From the NCBI GenBank assembly GCA_944389865.1, contig CALXNX010000005.1:1-64000 (forward strand): DNA of 64,000 nucleotides. The letters are read 5' to 3'. A model generated the notes under the pieces. That model worked only from the letters and a program-made list of their open reading frames with translations, searched no databases and was not told the DNA's origin. The translations under genes and the position numbers were made by a program. Origin of the DNA: an uncultured Succinivibrionaceae bacterium. GTDB taxonomy: Bacteria > Pseudomonadota > Gammaproteobacteria > Enterobacterales > Succinivibrionaceae. Shown here piece after piece: positions 8,282 to 18,447 of this stretch; position 1 is the stretch's first letter; each line of letters begins with the position of its first letter.

Positions 8282-9481
8282 TCAGGCGGCTGAGAGATGC
8301 GCCGCCGGGGCGCAGGAAGCGGCCTTTAAGGCCGGATAAAGGGTGCACAGGGCCGATAAGGTCAGGCAGCTTAAGGCAATCAGGGCAATGTGCCCCGGGT
8401 TGAGCTCCACGGGAAGCTCTCCTGTCGTGATGGAAATGCCCATCAGGCTTAAAATTTCCTGGGCGTGCAGGGACAGCGGAATGCCTGCAGCCACGCCCAG
8501 GGCAATGCCGGCTGCGGCGCAGATCAGGCCCTGCAGCAGGAAAATCTGCAGGATGAAGCCGCGCGAGCACCCTAAAGTTTTCAGCACGGCAATCTCGCGG
8601 GTGCGGGCGCTCACCAGCATGGTTAAAGCTGATAGGATGTTGAAGGCGGCTGTGACGATGATAAGGCACAGCATTACCGACATTGAGAGCTTTTCCAGGG
8701 CCACCGCTTTAAAGAAATCGCCCTGCTGTGCGCGCCAGTCCGTGAAGGTAAGGCCCGCGGCCGTCAGCTCCTGCGCCACGGATTCAATGGCAAAAGGATC
8801 GCTCAAAAAGAGGCGTACGGCCTGCTCTTTAGTGCGCAGCAGGCGGCGCACGTCCTCTAAGGCTGCAATTAAGGTTACAGCTGATCCCGGCGGCAGCGGC
8901 AGGGCGGCAGAGCCGGCGACGGTAAAGATGCGCTGCGTCGGGGTAAGTCCCAAGGGGGTATAGCGGGCATTGGAGGCGGCGATCAGGCGCAGATTGGAGC
9001 CCAGGCTCAAGCCGTGCTCGAGTAAAAAGAGCTGCGGGGCAATGAGCGCGTAAGAGCCAGCCTTGGGCGGCTGGGGCAGGCCTAAAGACTGGGGCGCAGG
9101 CGCTGCGTCAGCGGATTTTCCCTGCAGGGCAGAGAGATCATAGCCCGTGAAATCGGCCAGCTGCATCCCATCCGGCGTCTGCAGCAGTACCTGACCTGAA
9201 AGGTAAGGCATCAGTGCGGTGACTTCAGGCAGCGAGAGCAGAAAGTGGATGGTATGTTCGTCTTTTACCTGCACCACTGCCTGCGCTGCAGTGGATAGCA
9301 CTGCATCTTTAAGGCGCGTCTGCAGTCCGCTCATCACTGCAGAAACGGTGATAAGGGCGCATACTCCGACCGCCATGCCCAGGGAAGCCATCAAGGCCAC
9401 CAAAAAGGCGAATTTATGGGTCCTGCCGGACAGGGCATAGCGCAGCGCGATGGCAAGCTGCAGCGGAGCGAATAAGCGCAT
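8282..9481 (-). CDS. lolC: Lipoprotein-releasing ABC permease LolC-type
   Basis: A 399-aa FtsX-like permease, the second membrane subunit of LolCDE. It begins LALRYALSGRTH-like, with LGMAVGVCALITVSAVMSG in TM1, then a periplasmic domain, and C-terminal TMs with 'AFNILSALTMLVSARTREIAVLKTLG', the canonical coupling region. Its start overlaps the pdxH stop as TAATG (1-nt overlap), so pdxH-lolC-lolD-lolE reads as one operon. LolC versus LolE is assigned by gene order; the two are paralogues. Confidence 0.88.
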   Translation of the reverse strand: MRLFAPLQLAIALRYALSGRTHKFAFLVALMASLGMAVGVCALITVSAVMSGLQTRLKDAVLSTAAQAVVQVKDEHTIHFLLSLPEVTALMPYLSGQVLLQTPDGMQLADFTGYDLSALQGKSADAAPAPQSLGLPQPPKAGSYALIAPQLFLLEHGLSLGSNLRLIAASNARYTPLGLTPTQRIFTVAGSAALPLPPGSAVTLIAALEDVRRLLRTKEQAVRLFLSDPFAIESVAQELTAAGLTFTDWRAQQGDFFKAVALEKLSMSVMLCLIIVTAAFNILSALTMLVSARTREIAVLKTLGCSRGFILQIFLLQGLICAAAGIALGVAAGIPLSLHAQEILSLMGISITTGELPVELNPGHIALIALSCLTLSALCTLYPALKAASCAPAAHLSAA

Positions 9482-11709: not shown

Positions 11710-12853
11710 CCTCAAACACCACCTGTTTGCTGAGCTGGTTTCCGTCCCGCCACCTCAAACATCACCTGTTTGCTGAGTCATACATGGCGGTGCCGCCTCA
11801 AACATCACCTGTTTGCTGAGATATATGCGCCGGGAAATCCTCAAACATCACCTGTTTGCTGAGCGCACTGCAGATGTACTACCTCAAACATCACCTGTTT
11901 GCTGAGCCACCTCTGAGCCGAAAGTCCTCAAACATCACCTGTTTGCTGAGGACTGCCGGTGCCTACGTCCTCAAACATCACCTGTTTGCTGAGTGAGGGC
12001 GATGTTGTTAACCTCAAACATCACCTGTTTGCTGAGATAGCGCGGCGCACACACCTCAAACATCACCTGTTTGCTGAGCCGGGGACTTTTGCCTTCCCTC
12101 AAACATCACCTGTTTGCTGAGTTACGCAGCCATTAGCGTCCTCAAACATCACCTGTTTGCTGAGTCCAATCACTTGGTGGTTCCTCAAACATCACCTGTT
12201 TGCTGAGTGATGCCCCATACAGGCCCTCAAACATCACCTGTTTGCTGAGCATCAGTTTTGACGAGCCTCAAACATCACCTGTTTGCTGAGATTTTGTGCA
12301 TCATTAGGCCTCAAACATCACCTGTTTGCTGAGGGATGCAGCTGGCCGATTCCTCAAACATCACCTGTTTGCTGAGCAAGACCCTCTTTGGATACCTCAA
12401 ACATCACCTATTTGCTGAGAGAATGTCGACTGACTACCCTCAAACATCACCTATTTGCTGAGTAAAGGCAATAGGTAACGAACCTCAAACATCACCTATT
12501 TGCTGAGGAAACAAACCGGCTGATACCTCAAACATCACCTATTTGCTGAGAATCTTACATGGCCCCATCCTCAAACATCACCTATTTGCTGAGTCGGAGC
12601 CTGCCGGAAAACCTCAAACATCACCTATTTGCTGAGGCCGTCTTGATTGTGCTCACCTCAAACATCACCTATTTGCTGAGCACGACATTGACGGAGTTTC
12701 CTCAAACATCACCTATTTGCTGAGTCCTGAGCGCTCACCCAGCCTCAAACATCACCTATTTGCTGAGTCATTGAGGGCGCTTTAACCTCAAACATCACCT
12801 ATTTGCTGAGCCACTTTGGGTTTTTGTACCTCAAACATCACCTATTTGCTGAG
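11710..12853 (-). CRISPR. CRISPR array, 27 repeats of 25 bp, 26 short spacers (type V-C-like)
   Basis: I counted 27 repeats and 26 spacers. On the minus strand the repeat begins CTCAGCAAAC and ends GATGTTTGAGG. Spacer lengths are 18 nt (19 of 26), with single cases or a few of 16, 17, 19 and 20 nt. Repeats 1-16 from the left carry CCTGTTTG on the plus strand; repeats 17-27 carry CCTATTTG. The leftmost repeat (11710-11734) has an extra substitution (ACC for ATC), typical of the leader-distal end. The repeat can fold CAAACA against TGTTTG with an asymmetric bulge. Short repeats with roughly 17-19-bp spacers are characteristic of subtypes V-C and V-D, whose Cas1 works without Cas2. Leftward transcription is inferred from the leader, the promoter and the end mutation. 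Confidence 0.97.
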
Positions 12854-12882
12854 AGTATATGGCAAAAATAAGGTATTTACAA
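12854..12882 (-). promoter_or_regulatory. Predicted array promoter abutting the first repeat
   Basis: On the minus strand, TTGTAA (12882-12877), a 17-bp spacer and TATACT (12859-12854) make a good sigma70-type promoter. The -10 box ends exactly at the leader-side edge of the last plus-strand repeat (12853), so transcription would begin inside the first repeat. It supports leftward reading of the array. Confidence 0.6.
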
Positions 12883-13039
12883 GGTTTAATATCGTTTGAA
12901 TATTTAAAACTAGGTGCTTAATTAATATAAATAATTCATTACTATTGAGTATAAGCATTGAAAAAATTGTATAATTTTCAAAAAGCCTGATACAACCAAT
13001 TAGCTCTATCGAATCATTTACTTCATGCCGGTATACTCT

Positions 13040-13087
13040 CAGCATTGCAGCATTGCAGCATTGCAGCATTGCAGCATTGCAGCATTG
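13040..13087. repeat. Tandem repeat, six exact copies of CAGCATTG
   Basis: The 8-bp unit CAGCATTG is repeated six times without a mismatch. It lies 187 bp from the leader-side repeat and 184 bp before the cas1 start. Perfect 8-mer runs like this are prone to slipped-strand copy-number change. Confidence 0.95.
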
Positions 13088-13271
13088 GCGCCAGTTTTCG
13101 TCCATGACGTGTACAATTTGTTTAAATTGCTCGTTTCAGGCCTAGATAATGATGATATTGTCGCCAGTGAAAACGACGCTTATGCTGCAGCTGTTAGGGG
13201 AACAATACGGTGTTTATGGTAGGCTGAAGTTTGGGCATGACAGCATTCAGATCTGCTAATGAGAGGAGAAT

Positions 13272-14318
13272 ATGCAGGAGGTTACAAACGAGCAGCACAG
13301 CGATTTTATCTGGACTTGGAAATCCAATGCTAAGGGGCGTCGTGTAAGTTTATGGATCCCTTATTTAAAGCAAATCTCCAAACTTAAGGGGCGGGGTAAA
13401 TGGAAAATTGAGTTTAAAGGTGGAGATCTGGAGATAAATTTAGCCAATATTGACTTTATCATGCTCTATGGGTGCTCAGGAAATTTGCCTGTAGAGTTTT
13501 TGGACAGCGTGTGCGCCTATCATATTACTCTTATGATTCATCGGCGTAATATGCAGTACCCCGCGATTATGTATTCATCTCCTCATACAGATGATCAAGA
13601 TGTTTTGACCCAGCAAATTTTATACAGGCAAAATGCCATTAAATGCACTTATATCGCGCGTATCCTTATCCGTGAGAGGTTGGATCGATTTAAGTATGCT
13701 GTTACCTTTGCTGATGTAGGGAAGGAGCGTTTGCAGAAAGCGCGTACGGTTGAAACAGTTAGAGCTATAGAAGCAGAGATAACTGCTAAATTTTGGAAGG
13801 AATGGTTCACGTCGCTTAAGCATCCTGATTGGACAAGGCGCGGCAAGAATCATATATCGGCAGCTTTGGATGCGTGCTCGTTCTTTATGTACGGGATCCT
13901 GTTACGCTGGATTCTTTTTCATAAATTATCTCCGTGCCATGCCTATCTTCATCAGCCGTCATCTTATCCTTCACTGCCCTATGACTTGATGGAACCTTAC
14001 CGCTATATTATTGAGAGTGCGGTTGCTTTTACGGCCGAGCAAGGGATTGAAGAGGATTCTTTTACGGCTTTTGCCTTGGAAAATTTGAAAGATCTTCTAA
14101 ATGAAGTGGTATATGTGCCAGCAACGCGGCAATTCTTGCGGCGTAAAAACCTGCTTCATGGTATTGTGTTAGCGCTGAGATCGTACCTGCTCGGAGAAAG
14201 TAAAAACTTCATACCGCCGGTAGAGGGGAAAAAGAAAGGAGGCCGCCCTCCGCAGGTCGGTTATAAGCTGCCCGGAGAAGTACCGGAACCGATAACCCCG
14301 TTGGGTAAATATATTTAG
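13272..14318 (+). CDS. cas1: Cas1 integrase of a type V (V-C-like) CRISPR system
   Basis: A 348-aa divergent Cas1, the metal-dependent integrase that inserts new spacers at the leader end. The three metal ligands are identifiable: E167 in RAIEAEIT, H227 in HAYLHQP and D238 in SLPYDLMEPYR. The helix DACSFFMYGILLRWI (about 200-214) matches the conserved 'N..L.YGY..L' helix before the His. The N-terminal beta domain begins VSLWIPYLKQISKLKG. No cas2 or cas4 exists nearby, consistent with V-C and V-D systems where Cas1 alone has been described as a mini-integrase for short spacers. The C-terminus is Gly/Pro/Lys-rich (KKKGGRPPQ). AT content is clearly higher than in the flanking genes, suggesting transfer. 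Confidence 0.88.
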   Translation: MQEVTNEQHSDFIWTWKSNAKGRRVSLWIPYLKQISKLKGRGKWKIEFKGGDLEINLANIDFIMLYGCSGNLPVEFLDSVCAYHITLMIHRRNMQYPAIMYSSPHTDDQDVLTQQILYRQNAIKCTYIARILIRERLDRFKYAVTFADVGKERLQKARTVETVRAIEAEITAKFWKEWFTSLKHPDWTRRGKNHISAALDACSFFMYGILLRWILFHKLSPCHAYLHQPSSYPSLPYDLMEPYRYIIESAVAFTAEQGIEEDSFTAFALENLKDLLNEVVYVPATRQFLRRKNLLHGIVLALRSYLLGESKNFIPPVEGKKKGGRPPQVGYKLPGEVPEPITPLGKYI

Positions 14319-14324
14319 ATTTGG

Positions 14325-14430
14325 GTGGGGCTTTTGGTGTCCAGTCGCCCCGGTGGATCCAGCTGCTTGAGGAAAGGATCTAGTGATCCGAGTGGGCAAA
14401 CTGGAATGTTTGCTCTGAATATTAAAATGT
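14325..14430 (+). ncRNA. Candidate scoutRNA (tracr-like RNA) between cas1 and cas12
   Basis: The 163-bp gap between cas1 and cas12 holds three compact stems: GGGGC/GCCCC (14327-14331 with 14347-14351), GGATC-TAGT-GATCC (14376-14389), and GCAAAC-TGGAAT-GTTTGC (14396-14413). The third resembles the CRISPR repeat in minus orientation: both read GCAAAC, a GG-containing middle, then ATGTTTG. As a plus-strand RNA it would carry UGUUUGCU (14407-14414), complementary to AGCAAACA of the crRNA repeat, and still pairs with the newer AGCAAAUA variant through a U.G wobble. Cas12c and Cas12d are known to need a short scoutRNA with a brief anti-repeat. Ends and promoter are guesses. Confidence 0.5.
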
Positions 14431-14481
14431 TGTAAGCTGGATGTCAACAGATTAAAAATTACAATTATAAAAGGGGAAAAT

Positions 14482-17400
14482 ATGCATATTATTGATTTGA
14501 ATGAGTTTGATGCTTACCATCAAAATACAGGAAGGAAGTTTGGGTATAAAGATCTTCAATTAAAAAGCGGAGCTGAGTTAAAACGTTTTCGCCGCAATCT
14601 AGCTGCAGGCAGATTTTTCCCAAACTCAAAAAAGCAATCGACTCAAACCAGAACCTTCAAATTTCCCCTTGAAATTCCGTTTGATCTTCTGCCTGATCTT
14701 AAAAACTTCTATCAACAATTACTGCATGACTATAATGTGATTGCAGGAAATAATGACGGCTCACAATTTGAACTGTGGGCTCGTCTGCTGCTGTCTCAAT
14801 TCAGAATCCATGATAGTGCAGCAGCCGCGGAATCCGCTTACTTTTCTAAAGCAGAGGATGATAATTATGCGAAGCAGCTGACAGAATATTTTGGCAGGGA
14901 TAATGCGGCGTGGCGTCCTTCAGCCATTGTACAAGCATTTTCTGCAGCCCCGCGGGCAAAAGAGCTCAATGTAGACAATTTGAAACTCCAGCTGCAAAGT
15001 AAATTAAAACTGATAGCTGATGGTGAGCATCCTAAAGAGCAATCGTTTCTTAATTACCTGGCTGATACTTTGATTTTACAGAGTCAGCAGGGCAAATGGA
15101 CTGAAATATTTAACAAAAAAGGCAGAGGCAGCTCTCTGCATGATTCCCTGACAGCAATCGATAGATATTTTGCAGATCAAGAGCTGCGGCTTAATTTGCA
15201 GCTGGCATCATTGGCAGATGACAGCAGCGAAGTGCGTTCTGATTCAATAGTTACCTATGATGCATCGCTGCCTATACTGGAATACCATCCTGACAGTGCT
15301 TTCTATTCTTTGATTTCTTTAGCTCTGTCAGAATGCCCAGACCGAGATGAGTTAAGGACTCTATTTGAGCACTTTGAAGTAAACAAGGTCGATAAATTAA
15401 AGCAGAGGCTGCAGTCTTTCCTTGAATTGCGCATGATTACCAGTCAGCAGGTTAATGGATTCAATTGGCTGTTTGGCAAGGGACTTGAAGCTGTTAAACA
15501 ATACAAAGAAGGTAAGATCTCTCCCGAAGAATTAAGACAGCGCTATAAACTGCCTACAGGCGGTCTACAACCGTTATTGAACGTGATTGACGCCATGACG
15601 GCTCTGCCAAATTTGCAGTCAGTTGAATTTAATCTGAACAACTTTAGAAAGCAGCTAGGGGCCTTTATCAGCGGCTGGTGCGCTTTGTTTCTTGATCGAC
15701 TGTTTGAAATATTAGCAGCACTGAAAGAACGGCCTGTGCAGCTGAAACTGCCTTCATTAATTCTGGATCATTCGGCAGATGTCGATAAAATTTTGGCGCT
15801 CAATAATCTATCCCTTTCGGAGTTTGAAAATGCAGCGACGGAATACGAAAACTGCAGAACCGCAGCGGAGTCAGCTTTAAAAATCCTGTTTGGTTTAGTA
15901 CCAGACACCTATGCTGAGAAAAAGGATGTGCTGGCGGTTGCAAACTTCCGCGATAGCTCTCAAGCACTTCAATCTTTGTACCGCTCTTTAAAAAATGCCA
16001 TTAATCAGATTGTCAAGTTCGATGCTGAGCGTTTTGCTGATAACGATCTGGTTAAGGTTTACCCGAAGACTAATGATGAAGTGAATGCTTTGTGGCAGGA
16101 CTGGGATCTCTTTTTTGAAACTAAAATTAAAAAGATCAATACGTATCAATTGACTAAAAATGATTTGTTAACAGAAACATCAGCACAGACTGTTCGCTGC
16201 CGACAGCTGCAGATTGCTCTTGACAAGTGCAGTGAGCTGATTGGCTCAGAGATACGTGGTGCTAAGCTGGACAAGTTAGCACAGACAGAGCAGGAGTTGC
16301 GTAAGATCTTGAGCCGATTTATTAAGTTGGTGCAAAGACAGTATGATCCAGCAGCTGAATTGTTTAAGGAATGGTTCTGCCGCACCAATATTTTGAAAGA
16401 GGAAGACCGCGGCCTTATTCAGGAGGGGCAGGACGGAGGGGCGGCTGAGTTAGATTTTTCCCAAACGGATCATCAACTGATTAAAGGCAGTGACGGTCGC
16501 TTTTGTACGCCAATTAATGCCCATAAATTGATCTATTCTGCTCAAGGGGTGATTTATAAAAATTCATTTTCATCAGATAAACGTCAGCCCTTTGCACTGA
16601 GCTCTTGGGCGGTCTGCCATCGAGGAGATGTTTTGTCTTCCTTAGATGCATTTATTGACAGATTAGATGATCAGCCATTTGCAGGTGCAGCAGCAGTTAC
16701 GGCCTTAAAGCTTAAGCTGTGCTGGCAAATGGTGAAATGCGCTCTTCTGCCGGATGATTTTTCGCTGCAGGAGATTTATGCTGAGGTCGAAAAAATCGGT
16801 TTATCTTTGGTGATGCCCTTGCCGATACTGCAGCGCTTAACTCCTGCCATGGCAGCCAACAAAATTTTAAATTCGTTTTTCAGCGAATTGAGTTCATTAT
16901 TTCAGCAGTCCTTAAATCGACAGGTGTTTACTAATCTGTGTTTTAAGCCTATTTACCATGAGCTCTTTTATGTAGTAAAGCCTGGTAAGAGCGCATGGGC
17001 CATGCCTAAAGCCTTCAGAGACTCTTTGAAGGATAAGGATTTGCAGCAGGCAGTGATGCAGTCTCAGCGCAGTGACGGGTTGATTGATACGAATAAACTT
17101 TTCAGTCTGCTGGCAAAAATAAAAAGCAGCGATACAAAGCCGGAGCTCGCTTTGCTGCTGCAGCAGATGCCGCATGATTGGTGTTTTGATCCTAAATTTG
17201 CGCAGCTGTCCACTGCTTATGCGAAGCAGAAGGATCCCCCGCCTTTGGTGTTGAAAGTAAATGATAAGGGTATTAGTTTTCAGAAGCCGAAGAAAGCTTC
17301 TTTATTCCGCTTGATCGGCAATAGCCGCTATAAGGCTCTGCTGGATAGTCTGTTGTTTGGCAGGACTCATTTATCAGAAATGCAGATCTTAGCTTCTGTT

Positions 17401-18447
17401 TTTGTTGATCAAGAGCAGCAGCAGGTCAGCTCGGTTGAAATTCAGGCCTGTTTGCCTCTTAAAGAAGATCTTGTGAGCAGTGATGAGACTTATAAGCCTT
17501 TTGAAAACATTATCGGCATTGATCAGGGCGAATTTGGTATTGCTTTCACGGTGATGCCTATTGATTACCTGGATCGGCCTGAAAGTGAACGTACCTACCT
17601 CTGCGGATATGTCAGGGTCAATTCGTTCAAAGCTTTAATCTCAGATGTGAAGCATTATCGTAAAAATCAGCGTCCGGTGAAGTTTTCGCAATCGGCCGGA
17701 TCTTCGCGTTTTAATATCAGGAAGAATGTCACAGGCGACGTGTGCGGCGTGATTGCGGCCTTAATGGAGAAATTTAGGGCATTTCCAATCCTGGAGAGAA
17801 ATGTTTCTAACCTTGAATCTGGCGGCAGGGCATTGCAGAATGTGTATAAAGCAGTCAACTCCTTCTACTTGTACGACTCTATTAAAGAGCATCAGACTGC
17901 GCGGCAGAACTTTTGGATGGGAGAGACTAAGTTCGTTTCAACCATGTACAAGGTTGCTGATTCATTAAAAAATAATGGACTTAAAGATCTGATATTCTCC
18001 CCGGGCTTTGGTGTATCGGCATCAGGTACCAGCCGTATCTGCCATATCTGCGGAAAAAATGTTTATGATTTCTTTGAGGCGGCCAAAAAGAAGGGCGCCA
18101 AAGTAGAAGTCAAAGACGGCGTGCTGATCCTGGAAGGTCAGCGCATCGTTCTTTTTACCGCAGACGAGAAAACGAAGAGTAAAACTGCGCGCGCTCAGCT
18201 GCGCCTTAAGCTCAAAGACAGAATTTATGACTTGAAGAAGGACAGCGGTGCGCTGAAACGGCTGATTGCTCGCAATCTGCGCCGAGCGCCGCGATATTTA
18301 AACGTTAAGGATTCGCAGCAGAGTCGTTTTTACTGCGTCTTTGAGGATTGCCCAGCCTGCGGAAAAGAACAGCATGCCGACGTTAACGCTTCCTTTAATA
18401 TTGCAATGCGCTTTTTACAGAGCCTGCGGCGGATCCAAGGGAAATAG
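14482..18447 (+). CDS. cas12c: Type V CRISPR effector, Cas12c-like
   Basis: A 1321-aa RNA-guided effector. The split RuvC domain sits in the C-terminal quarter: motif I IIGIDQGEFGIAF (D1014), motif II FPILERNVSNLE (E1105), motif III CGKEQHADVNASFNIA (D1300). Two zinc-finger halves, CHIC (C1187/C1190) and CPAC (C1290/C1293), flank an unusually long ~100-residue insert. No HNH is present. The first ~1000 residues should hold the recognition lobe and wedge domain but show no motif I can name. Size, a Cas1-only partner, 25-bp repeats and ~18-bp spacers all fit Cas12c (V-C); Cas12d (V-D) or a new subtype is possible. Characterised Cas12c proteins process crRNA and bind DNA without cutting it, silencing targets. 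AT-rich, transferred-looking. AAGGGG precedes the ATG. Confidence 0.85.
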   Translation: MHIIDLNEFDAYHQNTGRKFGYKDLQLKSGAELKRFRRNLAAGRFFPNSKKQSTQTRTFKFPLEIPFDLLPDLKNFYQQLLHDYNVIAGNNDGSQFELWARLLLSQFRIHDSAAAAESAYFSKAEDDNYAKQLTEYFGRDNAAWRPSAIVQAFSAAPRAKELNVDNLKLQLQSKLKLIADGEHPKEQSFLNYLADTLILQSQQGKWTEIFNKKGRGSSLHDSLTAIDRYFADQELRLNLQLASLADDSSEVRSDSIVTYDASLPILEYHPDSAFYSLISLALSECPDRDELRTLFEHFEVNKVDKLKQRLQSFLELRMITSQQVNGFNWLFGKGLEAVKQYKEGKISPEELRQRYKLPTGGLQPLLNVIDAMTALPNLQSVEFNLNNFRKQLGAFISGWCALFLDRLFEILAALKERPVQLKLPSLILDHSADVDKILALNNLSLSEFENAATEYENCRTAAESALKILFGLVPDTYAEKKDVLAVANFRDSSQALQSLYRSLKNAINQIVKFDAERFADNDLVKVYPKTNDEVNALWQDWDLFFETKIKKINTYQLTKNDLLTETSAQTVRCRQLQIALDKCSELIGSEIRGAKLDKLAQTEQELRKILSRFIKLVQRQYDPAAELFKEWFCRTNILKEEDRGLIQEGQDGGAAELDFSQTDHQLIKGSDGRFCTPINAHKLIYSAQGVIYKNSFSSDKRQPFALSSWAVCHRGDVLSSLDAFIDRLDDQPFAGAAAVTALKLKLCWQMVKCALLPDDFSLQEIYAEVEKIGLSLVMPLPILQRLTPAMAANKILNSFFSELSSLFQQSLNRQVFTNLCFKPIYHELFYVVKPGKSAWAMPKAFRDSLKDKDLQQAVMQSQRSDGLIDTNKLFSLLAKIKSSDTKPELALLLQQMPHDWCFDPKFAQLSTAYAKQKDPPPLVLKVNDKGISFQKPKKASLFRLIGNSRYKALLDSLLFGRTHLSEMQILASVFVDQEQQQVSSVEIQACLPLKEDLVSSDETYKPFENIIGIDQGEFGIAFTVMPIDYLDRPESERTYLCGYVRVNSFKALISDVKHYRKNQRPVKFSQSAGSSRFNIRKNVTGDVCGVIAALMEKFRAFPILERNVSNLESGGRALQNVYKAVNSFYLYDSIKEHQTARQNFWMGETKFVSTMYKVADSLKNNGLKDLIFSPGFGVSASGTSRICHICGKNVYDFFEAAKKKGAKVEVKDGVLILEGQRIVLFTADEKTKSKTARAQLRLKLKDRIYDLKKDSGALKRLIARNLRRAPRYLNVKDSQQSRFYCVFEDCPACGKEQHADVNASFNIAMRFLQSLRRIQGK

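What the first reader, a model, noticed from the sequence alone, without database searches (positions are those of the whole stretch)
14325..14430. Candidate scoutRNA between cas1 and cas12, with a repeat-like hairpin and an anti-repeat
Three compact stems sit in a 163-bp gap. The last, GCAAAC-TGGAAT-GTTTGC (14396-14413), looks like a decayed copy of the CRISPR repeat. Its plus-strand UGUUUGCU is complementary to AGCAAACA in the crRNA repeat, and tolerates the newer C-to-U repeat variant by a wobble. Cas12c and Cas12d depend on a short scoutRNA with a brief anti-repeat, and no other segment of the locus has both structure and complementarity.
Basis: partly seen in the sequence, partly recalled or inferred. 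Interest (0 to 1): 0.82.

Follow-up and report, generated by a model that had tools for sequence, protein, structure and literature searches.

The report
Cas12c scoutRNA encoded on opposite strand

Summary
The place is right, the strand is wrong. The type V-C locus (cas1 13272-14318, cas12c 14482-18447) has a structured RNA in its 163-bp gap, but on the minus strand (about 14415 down to 14325), antisense to the cas genes and on the crRNA strand. Twelve V-C loci (Succinivibrionaceae, Sutterella, Turicimonas, Mailhella, Binatia) share it: stem 1 enclosing stem 2 and a CCUC/CCUU dock, then stem 3, an anti-repeat and a 3' arm. Three segments pair with the crRNA repeat, as in the solved Cas12c2 complex. 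Across ten loci the minus-strand RNA fits its own repeat better than other loci's (0.0002 of permutations as good); the plus strand does not (0.44-0.61). A repeat core predicted from one orphan RNA found that genome's CRISPR array (ten copies). The window has a minus-strand TTGACA-17-TAATAT promoter. Verdict: new member of the Cas12c tracrRNA/scoutRNA kind. A covarying stem-3/3'-arm pseudoknot around the third anti-repeat may be new. Transcription and binding are untested.

The parts
14325..14415 (-). Cas12c tracrRNA/scoutRNA, predicted core (5' end near 14415-14411, 3' end at or beyond 14325)
   Evidence: homologous RNA in 12 V-C loci; covariation; alignment to Cas12c2 tracrRNA: minus strand 0/2000 shuffles as good, plus strand 0.13 (Cas12c2 letters recalled from memory, agreeing with all 32 bases named in PMC9522604); fold z-score -2.9
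14405..14411 (-). AAACAUU, anti-repeat 1 (PK1), pairs with crRNA GAUGUUU (-11..-5)
   Evidence: own-repeat pairing not reached by any of 20000 permutations over 10 loci
14399..14405 (-). stem 1, 5' arm UCCAGUU
   Evidence: pairs with 14358-14364; covaries (L014 UCCGGCU/AGCCGGA, L015 UUCUGCUAC/GUAGCAGAA); in MFE
14376..14389 (-). stem 2 GGAUC-ACUA-GAUCC (the WED-bound stem in Cas12c2)
   Evidence: fold; same GGAUC/GAUCC as Cas12c2 stem 2
14369..14372 (-). CCUC dock, anti-repeat 2 (PK2), pairs with crRNA GAGG (-4..-1); can extend to CCUCAAGCA (14364-14372) with UGUUUGAGG
   Evidence: CCUC in loci whose repeat ends GAGG, CCUU in loci ending AAGG; one wobble exception, L014
14358..14364 (-). stem 1, 3' arm AGCUGGA
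   Evidence: as stem 1 5' arm
14340..14357 (-). stem 3: UCCA (14354-14357) / UGGA (14340-14343)
   Evidence: stem 3 covaries over loci, 0/20000 permutations; only 4 bp in this genus
14336..14339 (-). CACC, anti-repeat 3, pairs with crRNA GGUG (-14..-11); 6-8 bp in the loci outside the genus
   Evidence: 0/20000 permutations over loci; reduced to 4 bp in this genus
14327..14351 (-). 3' arm helix P1: GGGGC (14347-14351, in the stem-3 loop) with GCCCC (14327-14331); pseudoknotted with stem 3 or alternative to it
   Evidence: covaries over 12 loci, 0/20000 permutations
14419..14447 (-). promoter TTGACA (14447-14442), 17 nt, TAATAT (14424-14419), which places the start at PK1
   Evidence: 10 of 12 matches, the only promoter-like site in 401 bp (two registers of one site); shuffles mean 0.5
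11710..12853 (-). CRISPR array, 27 repeats of 25 nt, crRNA read from the minus strand (CTCAGCAAA[C/U]AGGUGAUGUUUGAGG, then an 18-nt spacer)
   Evidence: degenerate repeat at 11710 is the distal end, cas1 side is the leader side
13272..14318 (+). cas1
   Evidence: PADLOC Cas1 E 2e-19; TIGR00287 57.8 bits, below its cut-off of 71.7
14482..18447 (+). cas12c, 1321 aa; D1014, E1105 and D1300 (the likely RuvC triad) invariant in the 4-sequence alignment
   Evidence: NF033950 404 bits, cut-off 250; PDB Cas12c1 and Cas12c2; alignment A1

Best explanation
The gap encodes the type V-C tracrRNA (scoutRNA) on the minus strand. A promoter at 14447-14419 starts it at the first anti-repeat. The RNA folds into stem 1 enclosing stem 2 (held by the Cas12c WED domain in Cas12c2) and presents three short segments to the crRNA repeat: AAACAUU (PK1), CCUC (dock, against the four repeat bases next to the spacer) and CACC in the 3' part (anti-repeat 3). 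Together they build the guide-RNA scaffold that Cas12c needs to bind its crRNA and to cut the pre-crRNA between spacer and next repeat. Shown here: conservation, covariation, co-evolution with the repeat, strand. Inferred from Cas12c2 (PMC9522604): protein binding and the role in processing. Not shown: that the RNA is made in this organism.
For: Homologous RNA in the gap of 11 cas1-cas12c loci and beside cas12c in Binatia. Structure counts on 7 loci: 88.8% of cells paired against 76% shuffled, 14 of 23 pairs with double changes, 0/500 shuffles; slid partners 37-50%. A covariance model from loci outside the genus finds held-out L053 (E 9e-19) and Binatia (2e-5). Own-repeat pairing: PK1 0/20000, anti-repeat 3 0/20000, dock 0.033; best helix on the minus strand 0.0002, on the plus strand 0.44-0.61. 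Blind test: a repeat core predicted from the orphan RNA of L019/G035 found TTGATAGGGTTTATGAGG ten times (nine at 43-44 bp spacing, one at the end of the cas contig), control 0. Window minus RNA against Cas12c2 tracrRNA 0/2000, plus strand 0.13 (Cas12c2 letters recalled, 32 of 32 named bases agree). Window crRNA bases U-12, G-8, U-7, U-6, U-5, G-4 and G-1 equal those named for Cas12c2. Promoter. In Mailhella the last hairpin is followed by TTTTTTGTTTT on this strand.
Against: No transcript data. The covariance model built without the genus gives the window only 5.6 bits (not significant) and L014/L015 E 0.16/0.22, although both are the top hits of their loci, full length, at the right place and strand. 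No clear intrinsic terminator in the window. Stem 3 and anti-repeat 3 are only 4 bp here. The dock permutation result alone is modest (0.033). Permutations do not correct for relatedness.
Confidence: 0.92

Rival explanations
1. One reading: a plus-strand scoutRNA whose repeat-like hairpin at 14396-14413 offers UGUUUGCU to AGCAAACA of the crRNA.
For: The 8-nt complement is exact for the older repeat, and the hairpin is in the plus-strand MFE.
Against: L014 keeps the same segment (GGAATGTTTGTTC) while its repeat reads TCATTCA instead of GCAAACA; the hairpin is absent in L015 and outside the genus; plus-strand pairing is at chance over ten loci; no plus-strand promoter-like site found around the gap; plus-strand match to Cas12c2 at chance.
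Confidence: 0.03
2. The conserved element is a regulatory structure in the cas1-cas12c mRNA (plus strand), for example a translational attenuator of cas12c, and the crRNA complementarity is incidental.
For: It lies in a cas1-cas12c gap read on the plus strand, and structure on one strand implies some on the other.
Against: Three segments track the repeat of their own array; in Binatia the RNA is on the cas12c strand, downstream of cas12c, so its sense relative to cas12c is not kept while its sense relative to the crRNA is.
Confidence: 0.03
3. An RNA from the stretch 12854-13271 (leader) is the effector-bound RNA.
Against: The covariance model finds no significant hit there, and the V-C RNA sits between cas1 and cas12c in the relatives.
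Confidence: 0.02

Closest known systems
Cas12c2 tracrRNA/scoutRNA (PDB 7V93/7V94, PMC9522604)
   Same: order PK1, stem 1, stem 2, linker, CCUC dock, stem 1, stem 3, anti-repeat 3; same GGAUC/GAUCC stem 2 and CCUCAA dock; same named crRNA bases -8 to -4 and -1; three separate repeat:anti-repeat duplexes
   Different: PK1 is longer (5-7 bp against 4); anti-repeat 3 is 4 bp in this genus (7 in Cas12c2, up to 8 in other loci); linker UUU instead of GUA; a 3' arm pairs with the stem-3 loop, which lies beyond the 71-nt construct used for the structure
Cas12c1 guide RNA (PDB 7VYX, Parasutterella muris per PMC11246509)
   Same: the Sutterella/Turicimonas loci used here are probably its near kin (inference); Cas12c1 is the best PDB match of the effector profile
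   Different: RNA letters not available here; not compared
Cas12d scoutRNA
   Same: short-complementarity RNA in a related type V system (as cited in PMC8616872)
   Different: different effector; no sequence comparison made

Membership tests
type V-C CRISPR-Cas system | Cas12c effector | tested here: met
   NF033950 404 bits, cut-off 250; PDB Cas12c1 and Cas12c2
type V-C CRISPR-Cas system | adjacent cas1 and CRISPR array with short (17-18 nt) spacers | tested here: met
   27 repeats, spacers 16-20 nt, mostly 18
Cas12c scoutRNA/tracrRNA | short dock complementary to the repeat end next to the spacer | tested here: met
   CCUC to GAGG; follows AAGG/CCUU over loci
Cas12c scoutRNA/tracrRNA | stem 1 enclosing stem 2 and the dock | tested here: met
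Cas12c scoutRNA/tracrRNA | further repeat:anti-repeat duplexes (PK1 and R:AR-3) | tested here: met
   R:AR-3 only 4 bp in the window
Cas12c scoutRNA/tracrRNA | expressed as a separate small RNA | not testable with these tools
   promoter-like site only
Cas12c scoutRNA/tracrRNA | bound by Cas12c and needed for pre-crRNA processing | not testable with these tools
   no biochemistry available
Rfam families | match above the gathering score | tested here: not met
   only a tRNA in the window

The most novel reading that the evidence does not exclude
In this branch of V-C systems the third anti-repeat sits in the loop of a conserved H-type pseudoknot (stem 3 plus a 3' arm pairing with the stem-3 loop), so the 3' end of the scoutRNA would switch between a closed pseudoknot or terminator hairpin and a crRNA-bound form. 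Both helices covary. The solved Cas12c2 structure used a 71-nt RNA that stops before the 3' arm.
Probability: 0.35. Interest if true: 0.55.

Novelty: new member of a known kind. Interest (0 to 1): 0.42.

Why it matters
It gives an uncharacterised Cas12c its likely guide-RNA partner with strand, ends and pairing map, which is what one needs to build a working guide. More generally, twelve loci give a comparative structure for the V-C scoutRNA, which no Rfam family matched here, and show that the repeat contacts co-evolve with the repeat. That supports, from natural sequences, the view taken from the Cas12c2 structure that this is a three-duplex tracrRNA rather than an RNA with one short dock.

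Tried and rejected
Plus-strand RNA with the 14396-14413 hairpin: rejected by relatives. Sense copies of the repeat seen in the plus-strand loop of several loci first looked like mimicry; they are the minus-strand anti-repeat 3. Rfam gave nothing. Viral contigs held no relatives. Array of L015/G003: predicted core searched, two single hits in what look like genes, as many as in the control, so no array found. G321 (L055) has a dock-like RNA downstream of cas12c by eye, but the model did not find it; left out of the counts. G537 has only a Cas12c C-terminal fragment and two repeats. In one search the script located the dock of L015 wrongly, which lowers its S1 and S3 scores; the overall result stands. 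MAFFT plus RNAalifold on all nine sequences gave almost no consensus structure on either strand; the structure was then laid on by hand following Cas12c2 and tested by permutation and shuffling. The original scoutRNA paper and the Cas12c1 structure paper are not held.

Full report
Observation. The window is part of a 2.3-Mb genome of the same genus as a Candidatus Anaerobiospirillum merdipullorum genome (G003 contig 32 and the contig of L015 have the same length and match). It carries a type V-C locus: cas1, cas12c of 1321 aa (NF033950 404 bits; PDB relatives Cas12c1 and Cas12c2) and a 27-repeat array at 11710-12853. The gap between cas1 and cas12c is 14319-14481.

crRNA strand. The array's degenerate repeat (CACCACC) is at 11710, away from cas1, and the cas1 side is the leader side, so the crRNA is read from the minus strand: CTCAGCAAACAGGTGATGTTTGAGG, then the spacer. 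Its bases U-12, G-8, U-7, U-6, U-5, G-4 and G-1 are those named for Cas12c2 (PMC9522604). The same layout holds in the other arrays next to cas1.

Relatives. Cas12c loci were found by the genome search and by a scan of genome contigs. Twelve have a readable RNA: the window; L014 (Succinivibrionaceae, Cas12c 61% identical); L015 (54%); L013/G022; L019/G035; L016 and L017 (Sutterella); L018 (Turicimonas); L020 (Mailhella); L051/G513; L053/G517; L057 (Binatia). In eleven the RNA is in the cas1-cas12c gap, antisense to both. In Binatia it follows cas12c on the same strand. In all of them its 3' end faces the 3' end of cas1 or of its remnant.

Which strand. Read on the strand antisense to cas1, the loci show one architecture: an anti-repeat, stem 1, stem 2, a three-base linker (GUA in many), CCUC or CCUU, the other arm of stem 1, stem 3, a second anti-repeat, and a 3' arm. 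This is the order in the Cas12c2 guide RNA described in PMC9522604: PK1, stem 1, stem 2, linker, dock C-58 to C-55, stem 1, stem 3, R:AR-3. I recalled the 71-nt Cas12c2 tracrRNA from memory; it agrees with all 32 bases the paper names, and the window's minus strand aligns to it better than 2000 of 2000 shuffles, the plus strand not (0.13). The match is densest from stem 2 to the dock: GGAUCACUAGAUCCUUUCCUCAA against GGAUCAAU-GAUCCGUACCUCAA.

Covariation. On seven loci outside the genus, 88.8% of cells pair (shuffled 76.0), 14 of 23 pairs have double changes, and no shuffle of 500 reaches either; sliding the partners drops pairing to 37-50%. Stem 1 is further supported inside the genus: UCCAGUU/AGCUGGA, UCCGGCU/AGCCGGA, UUCUGCUAC/GUAGCAGAA. 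Stem 3 and the 3'-arm helix P1 each beat all 20000 permutations of arms among loci. Since P1's 5' arm lies in the stem-3 loop, the two helices are either a pseudoknot or alternatives. The structure was laid on by hand following Cas12c2, not predicted from the alignment, and the permutations do not correct for relatedness.

Co-evolution with the repeat. For the ten loci with an array known beforehand, the 5' segment pairs with repeat positions about -12 to -5, and the 3' segment with -18 to -11, better with its own repeat than in any of 20000 permutations; the dock follows GAGG/CCUC and AAGG/CCUU with one wobble exception, 0.033. Taking simply the best helix between the whole RNA and the last 18 repeat bases, the minus strand is at 0.0002 and the plus strand at 0.61; with the whole repeat 0.001 and 0.44.

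Blind test. L019 lies on a contig in which no array had been recognised. From its RNA alone I predicted UUGAUAGG, then GUU, then AGG. The pattern hit its genome ten times: nine at 43-44-bp spacing on one contig and once at the very end of the cas contig, all TTGATAGGGTTTATGAGG; the reversed pattern hit nothing. The same test for L015 gave only chance hits.

L014 has a repeat that differs just there (TCATTCA instead of GCAAACA), yet keeps the segment GGAATGTTTG; what both repeats share is GATGTTT, the partner of minus-strand AAACATT. The nearly palindromic repeat explains why the plus strand seemed to fit. The newer repeat variant (C to U at -16) is outside every paired segment proposed for the window.

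Transcription. The window has one promoter-like site near the gap, TTGACA-17-TAATAT on the minus strand, whose start would fall at PK1. In Mailhella the last hairpin is followed by a run of T on this strand; in the window it is not. On its own the window's minus-strand RNA folds into stem 1, stem 2 and P1, z -2.9.

Weak points. The model made without the genus does not find the window with significance (5.6 bits); in L014 and L015 it ranks the right place first but at E 0.16 and 0.22. The claim for the window therefore rests on synteny, the genus alignment, the Cas12c2 match and crRNA pairing. Nothing here shows that the RNA exists.

Verdict. New member of a known kind: a Cas12c tracrRNA/scoutRNA. 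What may be new is the 3' pseudoknot around anti-repeat 3, and the co-evolution of the contacts with the repeat. The scoutRNA paper itself could not be read, so I cannot say whether its authors noted either.

Noticed in passing
12334-12351 and 9151-9168: Spacer 12 (AATCGGCCAGCTGCATCC) matches the host's own gene for an ABC-transporter permease-like protein (ORF 8282-9481, minus strand) over all 18 bases; only these two places in the genome. The 5' flank on the crRNA strand is CCGTGA, without the T at -2 of a TN PAM. Self-targeting by a Cas12c that may only silence would be worth a test.
   Followed up: partly
12395-12853: The eleven leader-proximal repeats carry one base change (CCTATTTG instead of CCTGTTTG) against the sixteen older ones: a repeat variant that entered from the leader end.
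   Followed up: partly
13040-13087: Six tandem copies of the 8-mer CAGCATTG between the array and cas1, which could vary in number.
   Followed up: no
L013:9789-11708: In G022 the cas12c gene is split: a 640-aa ORF on the other strand lies between its N-terminal and C-terminal parts, which looks like an insertion.
   Followed up: no
L054:7760-8403: G537 keeps only a C-terminal Cas12c fragment, preceded by two CRISPR repeats of Mailhella type: a decayed V-C locus.
   Followed up: no
L055:10378-10480: In G321 a dock-like RNA (CCUC after a stem) lies downstream of cas12c on its strand, tail to tail with cas1; seen by eye, not found by the model.
   Followed up: partly
14364-14372, minus strand: The dock can extend to CCUCAAGCA, 9 bp with crRNA UGUUUGAGG, in competition with PK1; possibly a genus-specific alternative.
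   Followed up: partly
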